A stretch of 5,291 nt of DNA from Chloroflexota bacterium (GTDB lineage Bacteria > Chloroflexota > Anaerolineae > Anaerolineales > Villigracilaceae). The notes below the pieces were generated by a model. It was not told the origin of the DNA and made no database searches. It saw nothing but the letters and a program-made list of their open reading frames with translations. A program made the translations under genes and the position numbers. This document shows, one piece after another, positions 1-5,291 of this stretch (position 1 is its first letter; every line of letters begins with the position of its first letter). Where the stretch lies: assembly GCA_021796155.1 (NCBI GenBank), contig JAJYOO010000209.1:1-5291 (forward strand), written 5' to 3'.

Positions 1-417
1 TATTTTCAGCATCTCAGTCTGCTTCATGGTGATTTCATGAACTTCTGCGGTCAGAGTATGGATCGCCATGAGTGTTTCGTGATCGCTCTCGGCGCGGGCG
101 TCGCTTGCGGCGGCCTGGACATTCTGACCGACAATGATGATGGGCAGCAACACCAACTGCAGGAAGGTTTGCGCAACCCATGCAACGATGATAATGGGAT
201 CATGGGAATTGATCGCAGCTGGCAGCGAGATGAGGGCAAGCAGGGCGAAGACATAGGCGCACCACATCGAGCCAACGACTTTGGTAATGCTTAATGCCAG
301 GTGTGTATTGATCCGGCCCATGAAACTGTCACCGTGAACATCTTTGTGAACATGTTCATTCAACACCAATTGAGGTACGTGGGCTTTTGCATCTGCAGTT
401 GAAAATTTGACAGACAT
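1..417 (-). CDS. DUF1003-like two-TM membrane protein (3' end outside window)
   Basis: The reading frame is open from the ATG at 417 to the window edge, giving 139 residues with no stop, so the C-terminus is missing. The start is well supported: AAGGAG (complement of 424-429) sits 6 nt upstream. A polar N-terminus (about 1-40) precedes two hydrophobic segments, about 44-66 and 75-97, separated by a short SHDP loop. After them comes VGQNVQ (96-101) and an acidic, probably helical tail (ASDARAESDHE...). Two membrane helices followed by a GQN-x-QAA...RAE-x-D tail is the pattern of DUF1003 (PF06210) inner-membrane proteins, whose function is not established. The match is from memory of the family, not a search. 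The gene is transcribed away from the cassette and divergently from argF. No terminator or convincing promoter is visible; a TATCAT at 461-456 on the minus strand is the only weak -10 candidate. Confidence 0.8.
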   Translation of the reverse strand, partial: MSVKFSTADAKAHVPQLVLNEHVHKDVHGDSFMGRINTHLALSITKVVGSMWCAYVFALLALISLPAAINSHDPIIIVAWVAQTFLQLVLLPIIIVGQNVQAAASDARAESDHETLMAIHTLTAEVHEITMKQTEMLKI

Positions 418-497
418 GGTCAGCTCCTTGGTTTGATGATGATTTTAGTGCAAATATGATAGGTTGTCGCGGGATTGAAAGAAAGTTAGGATGGACA

Positions 498-621
498 GGG
501 TAACGGCAAGTGTTAGCGGCAGGGCGGACGGGCAAGACTCCCTCGCCAACCAGAACCATTGCTAGCAAACGCGCTCCGTACCCTCAGGGCGAAGCCCTGT
601 CCGCTGCACACAATGTTAGGC
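498..621 (-). other. attC-like recombination site (59-base element)
   Basis: Read on the minus strand the site starts with R'' GCCTAAC (621-615) and ends with GTTACCC (504-498). The arms pair as follows, in plus-strand coordinates: TAAC 501-504 with GTTA 615-618; GTGT 510-513 with ACAC 608-611; GCAG 519-522 with CTGC 604-607; CGGAC 525-529 with GTCCG 599-603. Two G residues (523-524) are unpaired and resemble the extrahelical bases that orient attC folding. Inside lies a small hairpin, CAGGGC-GAA-GCCCTG (585-599). The 124-bp length falls within the range known for attC sites. The distal core GTTACCC does not fit GTTRRRY. If the cassette sits in a secondary site, those bases would be chromosomal, and the circular form would restore GTTAGGC. 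The left arm also has an extra TAGCG, so the stem is imperfect. Confidence 0.6.
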
Positions 622-626
622 GGGCA
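615..626 (+). repeat. 12-bp inverted repeat, gene-distal copy
   Basis: GTTAGGCGGGCA here is the exact reverse complement of TGCCCGCCTAAC at 2145-2156. The two copies bracket the three-gene operon, and identity stops abruptly on both sides of each copy. This copy overlaps the R'' box of the attC-like site and ends three bases before the stop codon of the last gene. Confidence 0.9.
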
Positions 627-628
627 AA

Positions 629-1264
629 TTAGTTGCTGGAATTTTGCGCGGGAAGCAAGCCCTGCTTTGATAGTTCATCCAGTAGCTCTTGGACGTTTTG
701 CATTACTATTTTTGATATTTCCTCTGCTGATGGTTTTGATCTTAGAGGAAATTCCAATACCCTGCCATCTGCCATGTAAGACATAAATACCGCTTTACCT
801 CCCCAATTACCCTCATAATCTCGGTTACCCGGAAAATCCATTCTTACGTAGATGTCGATGTTATAAGCAGAATTAACTGTGTCTATGCCGTATGAAAATC
901 TCAGAGAAAAGGAGCTAAAATCCCCCTTCACTCCCTTTAAATCGTCCCTCTCTATTTGAAGTTCAAAACCCGCATCAACATTTGATAATTTACCTTCGAG
1001 AGTGAATAGATTCTGGAAGCGCGACCCATCGGAAGTACTTTCTTCGTTAGGATAGAAGGAGTAGCAGTGATCTATAGGCGTCAACTTGCCTTTTCCAGCG
1101 AACAAGTTGTCATTGACATTCTTCAATATTTTTTTAAGTCCAAAGAAGGTATGAACCTCGGAATTCAGACGAATCATGTTACCAATAATTGTCTGAGAAT
1201 TTCCCTTCTTCTGAAGAGATAATTTATTAATCAGAATCAATTTGTATTGGTTTTCGTCCGTCAT
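629..1264 (-). CDS. Hypothetical cassette protein, third gene (211 aa)
   Basis: I do not recognise this 211-residue protein. Its ATG (1264-1262) overlaps the TGA of the preceding gene as ATGA, a typical sign of translational coupling, and I see no separate strong Shine-Dalgarno. It appears soluble, with no signal peptide or membrane segment. The N-terminal third is basic and mixed. The middle is rich in alternating polar and hydrophobic stretches that look like beta-strands (LRFSY at 121-125, VF at 159-160). The C-terminus is a probable amphipathic helix (179-203) with the ELLDE motif, following a P-x4-P element (P173, P178). These landmarks recur at matching places in the neighbouring 183-aa protein, so the two are probably paralogues. 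The stop lies a few bases from the attC-like site, the usual position for the last gene of a cassette. AT-rich composition sets it apart from argF and rocD. A defence, toxin-immunity or other accessory role is possible but unsupported by any motif I can name. Confidence 0.75.
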   Translation of the reverse strand: MTDENQYKLILINKLSLQKKGNSQTIIGNMIRLNSEVHTFFGLKKILKNVNDNLFAGKGKLTPIDHCYSFYPNEESTSDGSRFQNLFTLEGKLSNVDAGFELQIERDDLKGVKGDFSSFSLRFSYGIDTVNSAYNIDIYVRMDFPGNRDYEGNWGGKAVFMSYMADGRVLEFPLRSKPSAEEISKIVMQNVQELLDELSKQGLLPAQNSSN

Positions 1265-1812
1265 AATTTTTGAAGGATTCCAGAATCTAGGAGTTCGGAA
1301 GTAAAGGTCAACAATAAGTCATCGATATCCTTAGGCGTTCTTGAAATTGGATTCAGCCAGAAGTTTCGACTTATGGATTTCCCTACAAAGACTGTAGTTC
1401 CTTTTCTTTCCCTCGATTTAATACTGCCAAGCAGGTATAACCCAAAACAGTTCGCACTATTATAGTAGGAAAGTCTAATGCCAATGTGCTTTTTTACCTT
1501 ACCTTCCACCCAGTCTAAACTAGCCTGCACGCCCCCTCTTGTGCTTTCACCTAAATCAAGAAACTTCTCCTCGGGCGCGAACTCGCCTTCATCTAACCAA
1601 GAATCAATATGGATTTCTGGGCTAGTGATATTTCCGCTTTCTCCGAGATAGACTTTATTTATCGAGATAAGATAATCAATATACTTTTCCTGCTCGAAAT
1701 ATTCTTGACATTTCTTTGCTTCTTCAAGAGAACCTCGGAGTTGGGGGGATGGCTTAAATGACCCAATAACAGGAATGTTACTTTTCTTCCGAATCTCGTT
1801 TTTGTCAGTCAT
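1261..1812 (-). CDS. Hypothetical cassette protein, second gene (183 aa)
   Basis: The function is unknown. The frame is open further up to an ATG at 1845, but the likelier start is the ATG at 1812. That gives MTDKNE, which parallels the MTDENQ start of the next gene, and creates only an 8-nt overlap (ATGACTGA) with the first gene instead of 41 nt. The protein is soluble-looking and basic at the N-terminus, with a charged probable helix at 28-50. Strand-like stretches follow, with IRLSY at 112-116 and VF at 141-142, then P155-x4-P160 and a C-terminal helix containing ELLD (173-176). The spacing from VF to the first proline is 14 residues, identical to that in the downstream 211-aa protein, which supports common descent. 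Its TGA overlaps the next start codon, so the two are probably made in a fixed ratio and may form a complex. Base composition is low in GC, as in the rest of the cassette. Confidence 0.75.
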   Translation of the reverse strand: MTDKNEIRKKSNIPVIGSFKPSPQLRGSLEEAKKCQEYFEQEKYIDYLISINKVYLGESGNITSPEIHIDSWLDEGEFAPEEKFLDLGESTRGGVQASLDWVEGKVKKHIGIRLSYYNSANCFGLYLLGSIKSRERKGTTVFVGKSISRNFWLNPISRTPKDIDDLLLTFTSELLDSGILQKL

Positions 1813-2101
1813 TATACCCGCCGCCAACATCATCCCAAAAGCCATGCGTACAGTCGGACAGGCCCTTCACGGATTCTTGCCAAAGACCTGCTTCCATTGC
1901 TCTTCTTGCGGATGAGTGGAGAAAGCCGTATTGGTCTTCCCAGTATTGGCGACGATTCGCTTCTTCAACTTCCTGTCTGATTGCCCTATACCGTTGCAAA
2001 TCCGCGAATGACATTCCAGATTTTGGGGGTAACTGCCTAGATGTCGGAAGTCTATTGATAGTATTCAAATATCGCTGAGAATTGTATGGATTGAAGGACA
2101 T
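1805..2101 (-). CDS. Hypothetical cassette protein, first gene (98 aa)
   Basis: This small protein of 98 residues belongs to no family I recognise. The start is well supported by a strong Shine-Dalgarno, GAGGTGAT (complement of 2105-2112), just upstream of the ATG. The N-terminal 30 residues are polar and proline-rich (RLPTSRQLPPKSG). They are followed by a highly charged, probably helical stretch of about 32-75 with several aromatic residues (RQYWEDQYGF, GLWQE), and the tail ends in GFWDDVGGGYND. There is no membrane segment or signal peptide. It leads a three-gene operon in which each following start overlaps the preceding stop. The distance from the cassette border (GTTAGGC, 2156-2150) to its start is about 50 nt, typical of a cassette's first gene. 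It could be a small regulator or an antitoxin-like partner of the two downstream proteins, but that is only a guess from size and position. Confidence 0.7.
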   Translation of the reverse strand: MSFNPYNSQRYLNTINRLPTSRQLPPKSGMSFADLQRYRAIRQEVEEANRRQYWEDQYGFLHSSARRAMEAGLWQESVKGLSDCTHGFWDDVGGGYND

Positions 2102-2104
2102 AGG

Positions 2105-2112
2105 ATCACCTC
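2105..2112 (-). promoter_or_regulatory. Strong Shine-Dalgarno of the first cassette gene
   Basis: The minus strand reads GAGGTGAT, an eight-base match to the anti-Shine-Dalgarno end of 16S rRNA, immediately before the ATG at 2101. It is the only strong ribosome binding site in the three-gene cassette. Ribosomes probably load here, and the two downstream genes are reached through their start/stop overlaps. Confidence 0.75.
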
Positions 2113-2144
2113 TATCTTCATATTCTACTACTTTACTGCTTTCC

Positions 2145-2156
2145 TGCCCGCCTAAC
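2145..2156 (+). repeat. 12-bp inverted repeat and cassette-border core site
   Basis: TGCCCGCCTAAC is the exact inverted partner of 615-626. On the minus strand it contains GTTAGGC (2156-2150), which fits the integron core consensus GTTRRRY, with the expected crossover between G2156 and T2155. Just outside it is a 10-bp palindrome, TGGTTAACCA (2160-2169). It could be part of a degenerate upstream site, but I cannot assemble a full second attC or an attI around it. Confidence 0.65.
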
Positions 2157-2178: not shown

Positions 2179-2211
2179 CTGTATAACCCCCTGTTTTAGG
2201 TGGTTATACAG
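2179..2211. promoter_or_regulatory. 14-bp inverted repeat, candidate operator upstream of argF
   Basis: CTGTATAACC is mirrored exactly by GGTTATACAG. Including one mismatch, the arms extend to 14 bp around a 5-nt GTTTT centre. The midpoint (2195) lies about 28 bp upstream of a TATAAT box at 2223, so it would sit near -40 of that promoter, a position used by many repressors and activators. It does not resemble the ArgR/AhrC ARG box (TGAAT..ATTCA) well enough to name the regulator. No T-run follows it on either strand, so an intrinsic terminator is less likely. It could equally control the cassette genes that diverge from it. Confidence 0.45.
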
Positions 2212-2222
2212 AATTAGTTCCG

Positions 2223-2228
2223 TATAAT
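2223..2228 (+). promoter_or_regulatory. Candidate -10 box for the argF operon
   Basis: TATAAT is a perfect sigma-70-type -10 hexamer. At the proper spacing (about 2200-2205) there is no good -35, only part of the inverted repeat, which suggests either activator dependence or a chance match in AT-rich DNA. Transcription from here would give a leader of about 127 nt before argF. A second weak possibility, TTGAGA (2309-2314) with TAAACC (2331-2336), lies closer to the gene. Confidence 0.35.
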
Positions 2229-2350
2229 ATCCTATAGACAGATTATATATCAATCCCCAAATAAACCCAGATTTTGTCCAGATATACGCCACATCCAACA
2301 GGTGACGATTGAGACAGGTTACAATTGGCTTAAACCACTATACGTATTAC

Positions 2351-2361: not shown

Positions 2362-3285
2362 ATGAAGGACTTTCTCGCAATTTCTGATCTATCGTCTGCC
2401 CAAGTGCAAGATCTGCTCGATGTGGCGGTCAAGCTCAAAAAAGAACATTTCAAAACAGGCAACAAGAAAATTTTCAAAGGCAAAGTGCTGGGCATGATCT
2501 TCCAAAAGCCCAGCCTACGCACGCGCGTGTCGTTCGATATGGCGATGCGTCATTGCGGCGGCGATGCGTTGTATCTTTCGCCGAGCGAGATCGGACTTGG
2601 CAAACGCGAATCCATTGCGGACGTGGCGCGCGTGCTTTCAGGTTATGTCCATGCTTTGATGGCGCGCGTCTTCGAGCACGAGCATGTTCTGGAATTGGCA
2701 AAGTGGTCAAGCATTCCAGTTGTCAACGGCCTGAGCGATTACAATCATCCCTGTCAGGGCATGGCCGACGCATTAACTATTCAGGAGAAGTTTGGCAAAG
2801 CCAAAGGTTTGAACGTGACGTATGTCGGCGATGGAAATAATGTGGCCGTTTCGCTGATGCACGTCTCTGCCAAGCTCGGCTGGAATTTTACGATTGTCAA
2901 TCCCGAAGATTATGACATCACATCGAAGGCAATTGAAGTTGCTAAGAATATCGCAAAGGAAACCGGAAGCAAGTTGAATTTTCTGCGCGATCCGCATGAA
3001 GCAGTGAAGGGTGCGCACGTTATTTATACCGACACATGGACTTCGATGGGGCAGGAGGAAGAGACTGCTAAGCGCGAGGAAGTTTTCCATCCGTATCAGG
3101 TCAACGCGAAACTGGTCAGCGAAGCGGACAAGGATGTGATCGTAATGCACTGCCTGCCCGCGCATCGCAACCACGAGCTGACCGACGATGTGGCGGATGG
3201 TCCGCATTCGGCGATCTTCCCGCAGGCGCATAACCGTCTGCATGCGCAGAAGGCGATTCTCGCAAGGTTATTCGGCGTGGCGTAA
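2362..3285 (+). CDS. argF: Ornithine carbamoyltransferase
   Basis: This cytosolic enzyme makes citrulline and phosphate from ornithine and carbamoyl phosphate, the sixth step of arginine synthesis; catabolic versions run in reverse. The 307-residue length is normal for the family. The carbamoyl-phosphate loop is S51-L-R-T-R55 (the family usually has S-T-R-T-R). H129-P-C-Q132 is the second carbamoyl-phosphate motif. D224-x-W-x-S-M-G230 is the ornithine-binding SMG loop that separates OTCases from aspartate carbamoyltransferase. H263-C-L-P266 supplies the cysteine near ornithine. I chose the ATG at 2362 for its AGGAG site and for the [11 protein letters not shown] start typical of the family. 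It heads a plus-strand operon with rocD and ald. Whether it works in the anabolic or catabolic direction cannot be told from sequence, since no carbamate kinase, arginine deiminase or other arg gene is in view. GC content is far above that of the cassette next to it. Confidence 0.96.
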
Positions 3286-3289
3286 CAAT

Positions 3290-3342
3290 ATTTCCCTCAC
3301 CCCGCCCCTCTCCCATTGGGAGAGGGGCGGGGTGAGGGAAAT
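3290..3342. repeat. Perfect 26-bp-arm palindrome between argF and rocD
   Basis: Every base from 3290 to 3315 pairs with 3342 to 3317 around a single central T (3316), which I checked position by position. The core reads CCCTCTCCC-ATT-GGGAGAGGG, flanked by GC-rich CCTCACCCC and GGGGTGAGG. It starts 4 bases after the argF stop and ends just before the rocD ribosome binding site. A related copy fills the next intergenic gap, so this is a dispersed intergenic repeat (REP/MITE-like) and not a unique regulatory element. In RNA it would be a very stable hairpin within the operon transcript. It lacks a following U-run, so messenger stabilisation or partial attenuation is likelier than full termination. 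Confidence 0.9.
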
Positions 3343-3343
3343 C

Positions 3344-3348
3344 AAGGA
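3344..3348 (+). promoter_or_regulatory. Ribosome binding site deciding the rocD start
   Basis: AAGGA lies 7 nt before the ATG at 3356 and immediately follows the palindrome. The same frame is open upstream to 3188, but that would run through the argF 3' end and the repeat, so the start here is the credible one. Confidence 0.8.
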
Positions 3349-3355
3349 TAATTTT

Positions 3356-4558
3356 ATGAATACACAGGATTACATTGCTTTAGAAGAACAGTACGGCGCG
3401 CATAATTATCATCCGCTCGATGTGGTTATTAATCGTGGTGAGGGCGTGTGGGTCTACGATGTGGATGGTAAAAAATATTTGGATTGTCTTTCGGCTTACT
3501 CTGCTTTAAATCAGGGGCACGTTCATCCGAAAATTTTGAATGCATTGCTGGAACAGGCCAAGAAAGTCACATTGACCTCGCGCGCGTTCCGCAACGATCA
3601 ATTGCCGATGCTTTATAAAGAATTATCAGAAATGACCGGCTATGAAATGTCCCTGCCGATGAACAGTGGTGCGGAAGCTGTCGAGACGGCGGTCAAGCTA
3701 GTGCGCAAATGGGCGTATCGAGTCAAAGGTGTGCCGCGACATCAGGCCGAGATCATCACCGCGGCCGGAAATTTCCACGGACGCACGACAACTATTATTT
3801 CGTTCTCAACCGAGCCATCCTATCGCGACGACTTCGGTCCGTTCACGCCCGGATTTGTGACTGTACCTTACAGCGACGCGTCCACAGTGGAGAAAGCCAT
3901 CAATAAAAATACAGCGGCAGTTTTGCTTGAACCCATTCAGGGCGAAGGCGGGGTCATCATTCCTCCTGTCGGATATTTGAAGAAGGTCGCCGAGATCTGC
4001 AAGAAGAACAATGTTTTGTTCGTTGCCGACGAAATCCAAACCGGACTTGCACGCACAGGCAAACTTTTTGCGTGCGAGCATGAAGGCGTCCGCCCGGATA
4101 TTATGATTATTGGTAAGGCGCTGGCCGGAGGCTTTTATCCCGTCTCTGCGATCTTGGCGGATAAACCTATTCTCGGTTTATTCACGCCCGGTACGCACGG
4201 CTCGACCTTTGGTGGAAATCCGCTGGCTGCCGCGACTGCGCGCGCCGCGCTGGCAGTCATCCGCGATGAAAAACTTGCCGAGCGTTCCGAAAAGTTGGGC
4301 ACCTATTTTATGGAACAGTTGGCGGAGATTCCCAGCCCGCATGTCAAGGAAGTGCGCGGCAGGGGATTGCTGATCGGCGTGGAATTGAAGCCGTCGGCGG
4401 GCGGGGCGCGGCGTTTCTGCGAGGCGATGCAAGAGAAAGGCATCCTTGCAAAGGAGACGCACGATAATGTCATCCGCTTTGCGCCGCCGCTCATCATAGA
4501 GAAAGAAACGATTGATTGGGCGCTTCCATCCATTCGGGCAGTGCTTAATATGAAGTAA
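3356..4558 (+). CDS. rocD: Ornithine aminotransferase (ornithine-oxo-acid transaminase)
   Basis: This PLP enzyme (class III aminotransferase) moves the delta-amino group of ornithine to 2-oxoglutarate, giving glutamate-5-semialdehyde and glutamate, in the cytosol. The length is 400 aa, normal for bacterial RocD. The residues that separate it from acetylornithine or GABA aminotransferases are present. By alignment to the human enzyme from memory, Y18, Y48 and R143 match Tyr55, Tyr85 and Arg180; E197 matches Glu235; D225 matches Asp263; and the Schiff-base lysine K254 matches Lys292. Other family landmarks are YGAHNYHPL (13-21), NSGAEA (103-108), EPIQGEGG (192-199), DEIQTG (225-230) and GSTFGGNPL. 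The start at 3356 has AAGGA 7 nt upstream and gives the usual N-terminus. It lies 70 bp after argF and 104 bp before ald, with related palindromes in both gaps. ArgF and RocD compete for ornithine, so this pairing marks the branch between arginine and proline/glutamate. Confidence 0.96.
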
Positions 4559-4564
4559 TTTTCT

Positions 4565-4650
4565 CTCTCACCTGTCCTCACCTGCACTTGCGCCAGGTGC
4601 AAGTGTCGGACACCCTCTCCCATCGGGAGAGGGGAAAGGGGTGAGGGGAG
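4565..4650. repeat. Second copy of the palindromic repeat, with a nested hairpin
   Basis: The core CCCTCTCCC (4613-4621) pairs with GGGAGAGGG (4625-4633) around ATC. The right flank, GGGGTGAGGG, matches that of the copy at 3290-3342. The outer left arm CTCACC (4567-4572) pairs with GGTGAG (4640-4645). Between outer arm and core, about 40 nt (4573-4612) has no counterpart in the first copy. It forms its own hairpin: TGTCC/GGACA outside and CACTTGC (4585-4591)/GCAAGTG (4599-4605) inside. An alternative pairing, CACCTG with CAGGTG, exists in the same stretch. The whole unit fills the rocD-ald gap and ends just before the ald ribosome binding site. Confidence 0.85.
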
Positions 4651-4662
4651 TCGGAGGGCACA

Positions 4663-5291
4663 ATGAACATTGGCATACCCAAAGAACGTCGCCAGTTTGA
4701 GTTCCGCGTGGGGCTGTCGCCCGCAGGGGTAGAAATACTTGCTCAACATGGGCACCAAGTTTTTGTCGAGCATGAAGCGGGATTAATGGCAGGCTTCAGC
4801 GACGCGGAATATGAAAAGGCCGGCGCGCGTCTGGTCTACTCGACTGAGGAAGCCTTCGGTCGCGCTGATCTGCTGCTGAAGGTCGCGCGTCCGATGCTGG
4901 AAGAATTGAACTGGCTTCGACCGCGCTCGATCCTGACCGGCTTTTTGCACCTGGCCTCGGCGCGGCAGGATAAGATTGATATTTTACTCAAGAAGAAAGT
5001 CACGGCCATTGCTTATGAACAAATCACCGCACCGGACGGATCGCTTCCGGTATTGCGCCCATTCAGCCAGATCGGTGGAGCGATGGCGGCGCAGATCGCA
5101 GCGCGCCTGCTTCAAAATAATTGGGGCGGTAAAGGCATTCTGATGGGCGGTATGCCGGGCGTCCCGCCCGCGGAAATCGTTGTGATCGGCGCGGGGGTTG
5201 TAGGTACATATGCTACACAAATGTTCCTTGGCATGGGCGCGCATGTGACTGTGATCGATCATAACATTGCTGCGCTCCAGCGTATCTGGGG
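4663..5291 (+). CDS. ald: Alanine dehydrogenase (3' end outside window)
   Basis: This enzyme catalyses NAD-dependent reversible oxidation of L-alanine to pyruvate, ammonia and NADH. Only the first 209 codons are present. The start has GGAGGG (4653-4658) 4 nt upstream. The N-terminal substrate domain shows MNIGIPKE, then R15 in the position of the substrate-binding arginine, K73 (LLLKVARP) matching the catalytic lysine and H96 (FLHLA) matching the catalytic histidine of characterised Ald proteins. The stretch GGMPGVPPAEIVVIGAG is characteristic. The Rossmann NAD motif is G176-A-G-V-V-G181, followed by an acidic residue at the end of the second strand (VTVID) as expected for NAD. The catalytic aspartate near residue 270 would lie beyond the edge. 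The related transhydrogenase alpha subunit (PNT) shares this fold, but the PGVPPAEIVV and GTYATQ context favours Ald. As third gene of the operon it could assimilate or release ammonia alongside the RocD-produced glutamate. Confidence 0.92.
   Translation, partial: MNIGIPKERRQFEFRVGLSPAGVEILAQHGHQVFVEHEAGLMAGFSDAEYEKAGARLVYSTEEAFGRADLLLKVARPMLEELNWLRPRSILTGFLHLASARQDKIDILLKKKVTAIAYEQITAPDGSLPVLRPFSQIGGAMAAQIAARLLQNNWGGKGILMGGMPGVPPAEIVVIGAGVVGTYATQMFLGMGAHVTVIDHNIAALQRIW

What the first reader, a model, noticed from the sequence alone, without database searches (positions are those of the whole stretch)
498..2156. A lone integron-type cassette in an ordinary chromosomal neighbourhood
Seen: GTTAGGC upstream and an attC-like 124-bp palindrome downstream of a three-gene, AT-rich operon, with an exact 12-bp inverted repeat linking the two borders. 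Known: integron cassettes consist of a gene followed by attC, and cassette start and R'' box are complementary. Inferred: this is a cassette captured outside an integron array, between a membrane-protein gene and argF, with no integrase nearby. Such solitary sites in this kind of organism are little described.
Basis: partly seen in the sequence, partly recalled or inferred. Interest (0 to 1): 0.75.

Follow-up and report, generated by a model that had tools for sequence, protein, structure and literature searches.

The report
Solitary integron cassette beside argF
A three-gene mobile cassette of the kind that bacteria normally store in integrons sits alone in an ordinary stretch of a Chloroflexota (Anaerolineales) chromosome, next to an arginine gene, and looks like an off-target insertion by an integron integrase.

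Summary
The finding holds up. Minus-strand positions 2155 to 504 form a 1,652-bp integron cassette: G|TTAGGC start, three tightly coupled ORFs without family matches, then a full-length attC (621-498). An attC model built only from two tandem arrays in relatives (R3) scores it 41.6 bits (E 2e-10); the best background hit in 1.32 Mb is 12.5 bits. The 12-bp repeat joining the borders is the usual cassette signature: in a relative's 18 cassettes, start and own R'' agree at 71 of 72 variable core positions. R' as found (GTTACCC) does not match R''. Nine bases beyond the crossover lies a remnant of the metallo-beta-lactamase-fold gene that precedes argF in close relatives, so the chromosome resumes there. 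No integrase is among the seven window proteins scanned, but integron integrases exceed the curated cut-off in 21 of 40 related genomes. Solitary attC sites are frequent there (38 of 119 in 12 genomes); 8 of 18 checked have a matching cassette start, 6 of them clearly their own. Best reading: integrase-mediated insertion at a non-att GTT site ('attG'/SALIN type). New member of a known kind. Cargo function is unknown, and further cassettes beyond the 503-bp left flank are not excluded.

The parts
504..2155 (-). Gene cassette, 1,652 bp, read from 2155 (TTAGGC...) to 504 (...CCG); crossover points are 2156|2155 and 504|503
   Evidence: own-start/R'' match of 12 nt; G|TT rule for the crossover, GTTRRRY motif (PMC10127599 passages)
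2150..2156 (-). Cassette start G|TTAGGC; the G at 2156 belongs to the host
   Evidence: sequence
2104..2112 (-). Probable ribosome-binding site GAGGTGATC ahead of the ATG (2101) of ORF 1
   Evidence: sequence; inference
1805..2101 (-). Cassette ORF 1, 98 aa, no relative found
1261..1845 (-). Cassette ORF 2, 194 aa (183 aa from the ATG at 1812, overlapping ORF 1 by 8 nt); one relative at 67% identity
629..1264 (-). Cassette ORF 3, 211 aa, ATGA overlap with ORF 2; stop 7 nt before R''; no relative found
498..621 (-). attC site
   Evidence: R1 110 bits, model includes the window; R2 50.2 bits; R3 41.6 bits
615..621 (-). R'' box GCCTAAC
   Evidence: alignment
601..611 (-). L'' arm GTGT-gc-AGCGG (lower case: unpaired)
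510..519 (-). L' arm CCGCT-a-ACAC
498..504 (-). R' box as found, G|TTACCC: G from the cassette, TTACCC from the host
   Evidence: does not match R''; position
458..494 (+). Remnant (about 12 codons) of the 3' end of the metallo-beta-lactamase-fold gene that precedes argF in close relatives; a TGG codon reads TGA here
   Evidence: 86% over 37 bp to L208 (E 2.8e-6); weaker matches of 21-37 bp at the same place in G162, G169, G246; PF00753 for the intact gene
1..417 (-). DUF1003-like membrane protein (host gene, runs off the window)
   Evidence: PF06210 E 7e-4, below the curated cut-off; relatives in 5 of 152 genomes, no R2 hit at E <= 0.01 in their fetched loci
2224..2253 (-). Promoter-like site (TTGATA-18-TATTAT) in the host flank, reading into the cassette
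   Evidence: consensus match only
2362..3285 (+). argF (ornithine carbamoyltransferase), followed by argD 3356-4558 and an ald/PNT-type gene from 4663

Best explanation
It is a complete integron gene cassette (three translationally coupled genes plus attC) that an integron integrase, acting in trans, inserted at a non-att GTT site in the spacer between the old metallo-beta-lactamase-fold gene and argF. Shown: the attC identity by model, the cassette borders by the start/R'' match, a host remnant directly beyond the attC, and integrases and matching arrays in relatives. Inferred: the mechanism. The circular cassette's attC bottom strand folds to a hairpin, IntI joins it to the host G|TT site (CTCG|TTACCC on the minus strand), and replication resolves the junction. 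The insertion leaves an attC whose R' no longer pairs fully with R'', so excision should be poor and the cassette is likely kept there. Also inferred: expression from the cassette's own ribosome-binding site and a host promoter divergent from argF.
For: R3, built from 21 attCs of two arrays (G148, G024) with no window-derived sequence, gives 41.6 bits, E 2e-10; background best 12.5 bits in 1.32 Mb. R2, from 9 integrase-adjacent attCs, gives 50.2 bits, background 12.4. The L''/L' layout (4 bp, 2-nt bulge, 5 bp; 1-nt bulge opposite) is shared by 26 attCs: covariation 0.266 against 0.110 +- 0.015 shuffled (0 of 500) and at most 0.091 when slid. Own start against R'': 12 of 12 in the window; in a relative's array 71 of 72 core positions, unbroken for 9-12 nt in 15 of 18 cassettes. 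Closing the cassette moves the bottom-strand fold from z -0.7 to -4.2. Host remnant 9 bases from the crossover; ancestral gene order in 29 of 86 loci. Integron integrase over cut-off in 21 of 40 related genomes (0 of 14 controls over it) and in 6 of 11 near relatives. A matching start at 8 of 18 solitary sites in relatives; 0 of 19 on the opposite strand.
Against: No genome is held for the window, so an integrase in the same cell is inferred from relatives. The exact empty site was not found: spacers in relatives differ from the joined flanks beyond the 37-bp and argF-proximal matches, and 52 of 86 argF loci show no metallo-beta-lactamase-fold gene at all. R' as found departs from GTTRRRY at two positions (expected for host DNA, but decay would give the same). 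As it stands the site is not unusually stable when folded, and the better fold after closing is partly built in. In one search the number of pairs with a change on both sides (8) was reached by 19 of 500 shuffles. In one search, two of the eight matching starts (L230, L232) were matched as well or better by other sites' probes, and 10 of 18 sites had no start of 9 nt or more. Only 503 bp of left flank can be seen.
Confidence: 0.86

Rival explanations
1. It is one cassette of a longer cluster of attC sites without integrase (CALIN), or the worn end of a former integron, whose other parts lie left of the contig end; the DUF1003-like gene would be the next cassette.
For: Only 503 bp of left flank are visible; pairs and clusters occur in relatives, some in a genome without a detected integrase (G001); contigs often end near arrays.
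Against: The DNA right after the attC holds a remnant of the host gene that precedes argF in close relatives. DUF1003-like relatives show no R2 hit nearby at E <= 0.01. No other attC hit in the window, which includes 3.1 kb on the right.
Confidence: 0.1
2. It is another kind of mobile element whose terminal inverted repeat happens to be GTTAGGCGGGCA and which carries an internal palindrome.
For: A perfect 12-bp inverted repeat brackets three unknown genes.
Against: No transposase or recombinase family among the three ORFs. The second arm of the repeat is not at the element's end: 111 bp of attC follow it, as in cassettes. No target duplication at the borders beyond one shared base. The attC models match over their full length.
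Confidence: 0.02
3. The attC-like palindrome is a dispersed intergenic repeat and the three genes are ancestral to this place.
For: Solitary copies of the palindrome occur around relatives' chromosomes (38 of 119 sites), and 10 of 18 checked lack a cassette start of 9 nt or more.
Against: Tandem arrays and sites beside integrases, covariation of the two arms, a cassette start exactly matching R'', a different gene order in 29 of 86 argF loci, and no match to ORF 2 in 152 genomes.
Confidence: 0.02

Closest known systems
[quoted passage not shown] term seen in a passage of PMC12690207)
   Same: One attC with its cassette, no integrase seen nearby
   Different: Carries three coupled genes; in Anaerolineales; the left flank is too short to apply a 4-kb rule
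Off-target cassette insertion at attG sites (Loot et al. 2024, Nat Microbiol; paper not held; title seen in reference lists; described in a passage of PMC12444791 as sites that are neither attC nor attI, with broad integration in E. coli)
   Same: Cassette joined to chromosomal DNA at a G|TT that is neither attI nor attC
   Different: Natural case in a Chloroflexota contig; donor and integrase not observed
CALIN (cluster of attC sites lacking integrase; one proposed origin is off-target insertion, PMC8618304 passage)
   Same: attC cassettes separated from intI
   Different: Only one attC seen here
Chromosomal integron of the relative G148 (19 attCs in one cluster on contig C4; integrase on contig C5)
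   Same: Same attC layout, same start/R'' rule
   Different: No integrase, attI or array in the window

Membership tests
attC site | R'' box RYYYAAC | tested here: met
   GCCTAAC at 621-615
attC site | 3' crossover triplet G|TT, followed by bases of whatever lies next (RRRY when that is another cassette) | tested here: met
   GTT at 504-502. The following ACCC is not RRRY, as expected if host DNA follows; in the G148 array R' also departs from its own R'' (53 of 76 positions agree)
attC site | Conserved L''/L' stem with extrahelical bases, kept through compensatory changes | tested here: met
   helix 2: 94.9% paired, 5 of 9 pairs with changes on both sides; window arms fit. The structure was drawn from these sequences, which favours it
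attC site | Recombined by IntI as a folded bottom strand | not testable with these tools
   Needs a suicide-conjugation assay
Integron gene cassette | Start complementary to its own R'' | tested here: met
   12 of 12 nt; probes of 18 other sites reach at most 6 in the same upstream DNA
Integron gene cassette | ORF(s) filling the space between start and attC in one direction | tested here: met
   ORF 1 starts 54 nt after the start, ORF 3 ends 7 nt before R''
Complete integron | Adjacent intI and attI | tested here: not met
   No integrase among the seven window proteins scanned; host DNA beyond the attC. attI was not searched for by a model
SALIN | No other attC within 4 kb | tested here: inconclusive
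   None in the 5,291 bp, but only 503 bp on the left and 3.1 kb on the right are seen
attG insertion | Empty GTT site in a close relative | tested here: inconclusive
   Close relatives have a metallo-beta-lactamase-fold gene/argF spacer without cassette, but the exact site was not found

The most novel reading that the evidence does not exclude
In Anaerolineales, integrons do more than stockpile cassettes: off-target insertion regularly scatters single cassettes across the chromosome, where they come under host promoters, so solitary cassettes are a standing route of gene gain in this order. The window would be one well-preserved example among many.
Probability: 0.45. Interest if true: 0.6.

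Novelty: new member of a known kind. Interest (0 to 1): 0.45.

Why it matters
Integrons are particularly prevalent in Proteobacteria (PMC8618304 passage). Here an attC family shared by genomes of a mostly uncultured order of Chloroflexota is outlined, with a stem layout and a start/R'' rule that let solitary cassettes be delimited to the base. That turns 'how often do cassettes leave arrays in nature, and where do they land' into a countable question, and it marks unknown genes such as these three as mobile cargo.

Tried and rejected
Rfam scan of the window: no attC family hit. The eight hits up to E 1 (miRNA, frameshift element and similar) all score below their gathering scores and fall on the palindromic repeats at 3284-3394 and 4546-4644, so they were rejected. 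Folding the site as it stands, both strands: not distinguishable from shuffles. Exact 23-mer of the attC in viral contigs: none. attC region against plasmids: none. ORF 2 in plasmids and viral contigs: none. ORF 2 in 152 genomes of the family: none. Pfam, PADLOC, PHROGs and NCBIfam for the three ORFs: nothing useful, two PHROGs hits at E 0.13 and 0.26. ORF 2 and ORF 3 are not detectably related by sequence. AlphaFold models of ORF 3 (mean pLDDT 38.8) and ORF 2 (44.1) were too poor to search with, so no fold search was run. A first simple attC pattern scan found 2 sites in 14 loci, both read on either strand, and was replaced by covariance models. I considered the metallo-beta-lactamase-fold/argF spacer as a cassette hot spot: five relatives have larger gaps there (L004, L007, L211, L215, L219), but no R2 hit falls in them (at E <= 0.01, at E <= 10), so this was rejected.

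Limits of the counts: one search used stricter filters on 201 genomes drawn from a larger group. One search counts sites found by R1 or R2 at E <= 0.001 in 12 genomes chosen by me; only 150 first-look candidates per genome were scored, so counts are lower bounds, and some of the 38 single sites lie at contig ends (for example G148:C5:131 and G169:C17:99, contigs that also carry an integrase). One search examined 18 of the 19 solitary regions fetched; L248 was dropped because its R2 match was partial. R1 contains the window and its close homologues. R2 contains one site (G037a) first found by similarity to the window. R3 contains neither, but its two arrays were reached through R1 hits, and its sites were bounded by R1 (L133) and R2 (L216).

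Full report
WHAT IS THERE. The window is a 5,291-bp stretch of an Anaerolineales (Chloroflexota) genome, judged by its argF: 91% protein identity to the relative G148, and 79 of the 80 best argF loci bear Chloroflexota or Anaerolineae-type names (one is titled Omnitrophota; Brevefilum, Anaerolinea and Ornatilinea placed from my own knowledge). No whole genome is held for it. On the minus strand, G|TTAGGC at 2156 is followed by three ORFs (98, 194 or 183, and 211 aa) that overlap (2101-1805, 1812-1261, 1264-629), then an attC-like site at 621-498. ORF 1 has a good ribosome-binding site (GAGGTGATC, 2112-2104), and ORF 3 stops 7 nt before the site. G+C is 41% over 629-2101 against 53% over 2362-5291.

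IS IT AN attC? A first homology search in 40 related genomes found the palindrome in 13 of 40 at E <= 0.1, among them two copies about 760 bp apart in G001 and one about 650 bp from an integron integrase in G037. Ten sequences, the window's among them, gave model R1. In 20 fetched integrase regions, R1 (E <= 1) hit 6: L133 (4 sites), L142, L143, L146, L149 (2) and L152. Nine of these ten sites lie on the 5' side of the integrase and read away from it, as cassette arrays do; the one in L152 lies on the 3' side. The other 14 regions had no hit: in 13 the contig ends within 1.6 kb of the integrase on that side, but in L148 about 14.5 kb are visible and no site was found.

Nine integrase-adjacent sites gave R2. 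It finds the window site at full length with 50.2 bits, E 6e-11, and at best 12.4 bits in 1,319,949 bases of argF loci. R3, from 21 sites of the arrays in G148 and G024 only, gives 41.6 bits, E 2e-10, with background 12.5 bits. E-values are rough (short calibration). On 26 sites the proposed pairs score 0.266 for covariation, against 0.110 +- 0.015 in shuffles and at most 0.091 when slid; the L''/L' helix is 95% paired and R''/R' 81%; the weaker measure, pairs with a change on both sides, was reached by 19 of 500 shuffles. The window fits: GTGT-gc-AGCGG with CCGCT-a-ACAC.

BORDERS. In G148's 19-site array, the start of each of 18 cassettes was compared with the complement of its own R'': they agree at 71 of 72 variable core positions, unbroken for 9-12 nt in 15 of 18. 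R' and R'' of the same attC agree at only 53 of 76, because R' belongs to the next cassette. In the window the own start matches for 12 of 12 nt, while R' as found is GTTACCC. So the cassette runs from 2155 to 504, and what follows is not its own start. Closed on itself, the site folds as an attC (bottom strand -33.2 kcal/mol, z -4.2; as found -23.9, z -0.7; mononucleotide shuffles). Part of this gain is built in, as closing brings the 12-bp repeat together; that the L''/L' arms then pair as in the models is not.

THE HOST SITE. Of 86 argF loci with at least 400 bp upstream, a metallo-beta-lactamase-fold gene (PF00753 for that of G148) ends within 400 bp of argF on the same strand in 29, lies farther off in 5, and was not found in 52. 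About 12 codons near the 3' end of that gene survive at window 458-494: 86% over 37 bp to G148 (E 2.8e-6), with a stop in place of a Trp codon by my reading; weaker matches of 37, 21 and 34 bp fall at the same place in G169, G162 and G246. This is 9 bases from the crossover. On the other side, argF-proximal DNA matches G078 and G250. The cassette therefore lies inside the old spacer. The exact empty site was not found. The DUF1003-like gene (below the Pfam cut-off) has relatives in 5 of 152 genomes, not beside argF in the loci examined and with no R2 hit nearby, so I take it for host DNA and not a second cassette.

WHERE THE ENZYME COMES FROM. No integrase is among the seven window proteins scanned. 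TIGR02249 exceeds its curated cut-off in 21 of 40 related genomes (0 of 14 controls over it) and in 6 of 11 near relatives, including G148, G169 and G162 but not G001. R1 matches 88 of 201 genomes of the order at E <= 0.01. In 12 chosen genomes, R1 and R2 together find 119 sites; 38 have no other site within 4 kb, some of them at contig ends. Of 18 solitary sites examined, 8 have an own-start match of 9 nt or more, against 0 of 19 searches (window included) on the opposite strand. In two of the eight (L230, L232) probes of other sites do as well or better, so 6 are clearly their own. The other 10 may be decayed, wrongly bounded or not cassettes.

MECHANISM. [quoted passage not shown] The insertion placed the genes downstream of a promoter-like site divergent from argF (2253-2224 minus, 10 of 12 consensus bases; 12 such sites were found in the 2-kb region against 4.1 expected, so this is weak). 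With a mismatched R'/R'' pair the cassette is probably hard to excise.

WHAT THE GENES DO. Not known. No family match. ORF 1 and ORF 3 have no relative among 5.8 billion proteins at the tool's sensitivity; ORF 2 has one relative at 67% identity on a 1,386-bp contig. Cassette genes of chromosomal integrons are mostly of unknown function (PMC8618304 passage).

LITERATURE. Integrons are listed for Chloroflexota (PMC8618304 passage; PMC9668308 passage). Of my seven searches (listings seen), those for integron with Anaerolineales (3 papers) and for integron + Chloroflexi + attC + Anaerolineae (1 paper, PMC12772301, passages read) listed no paper with integrons of this order in its title or in the start of its abstract; of 25 papers with integron and Chloroflexota, 20 were listed. 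The key paper on attG sites (Loot et al. 2024) is not held; I rely on its title and on a passage of PMC12444791. The terms R'', L'', L', R' and extrahelical base come in part from general knowledge of attC sites.

VERDICT. Observation confirmed, interpretation supported. It is a natural example, delimited to the base, of a known process in a group where integrons seem little studied. The count in relatives suggests that such strays are common.

Noticed in passing
window 3290-3342 and 4605-4650: Two copies of a G+C-rich palindromic repeat (CCCTCACCCC...GGGGTGAGGG) between argF/argD and argD/ald; a similar string lies upstream of argF in G169. Probably a dispersed repeat of the group; it causes false miRNA hits in Rfam.
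   Followed up: partly
window 2179-2211: 14-bp inverted repeat CTGTATAACCCCCT/AGGTGGTTATACAG between the cassette border and argF; could be an operator of argF. By eye it is not in the argF upstream regions of eight relatives printed.
   Followed up: partly
L004, L007, L211, L215, L219 (upstream of argF): In these relatives 0.8-3.4 kb separate the metallo-beta-lactamase-fold gene from argF (in L007 and L215 only its C-terminal part matches), so the spacer has been opened several times, but no R2 hit falls there.
   Followed up: partly
L152:454-583 (G013:C13): An attC model hit on the 3' side of an integron integrase and not on its 5' side, unlike the other integrase regions with hits.
   Followed up: no
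L148 (G009:C23:56000-72000): An integron integrase over the cut-off with about 14.5 kb visible on its 5' side and no R1 hit: an integrase without detectable array, or with a different attC type.
   Followed up: no
loci (e.g. L134, L137, L139, L140, L144, L145, L147, L151): Contigs end within 1.6 kb upstream of intI in these loci, as if tandem attC arrays broke the assemblies; integron content of these genomes is probably undercounted.
   Followed up: partly
window 1261-1845 (P0002, P0003): ORF 2 has one relative at 67% identity on a 1,386-bp contig; the cluster of ORF 2 itself has 2 member sequences and a longest contig of 3,813 bp, so an identical protein may lie on another contig. Neither contig could be read here.
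   Followed up: partly
G016:C16:102829-103715, G016:C24, G009:C43, G246:C141:217-1161, G169:C43: Integron integrase reading frames with an internal stop or in pieces, suggesting decayed copies alongside intact ones elsewhere in the order.
   Followed up: no
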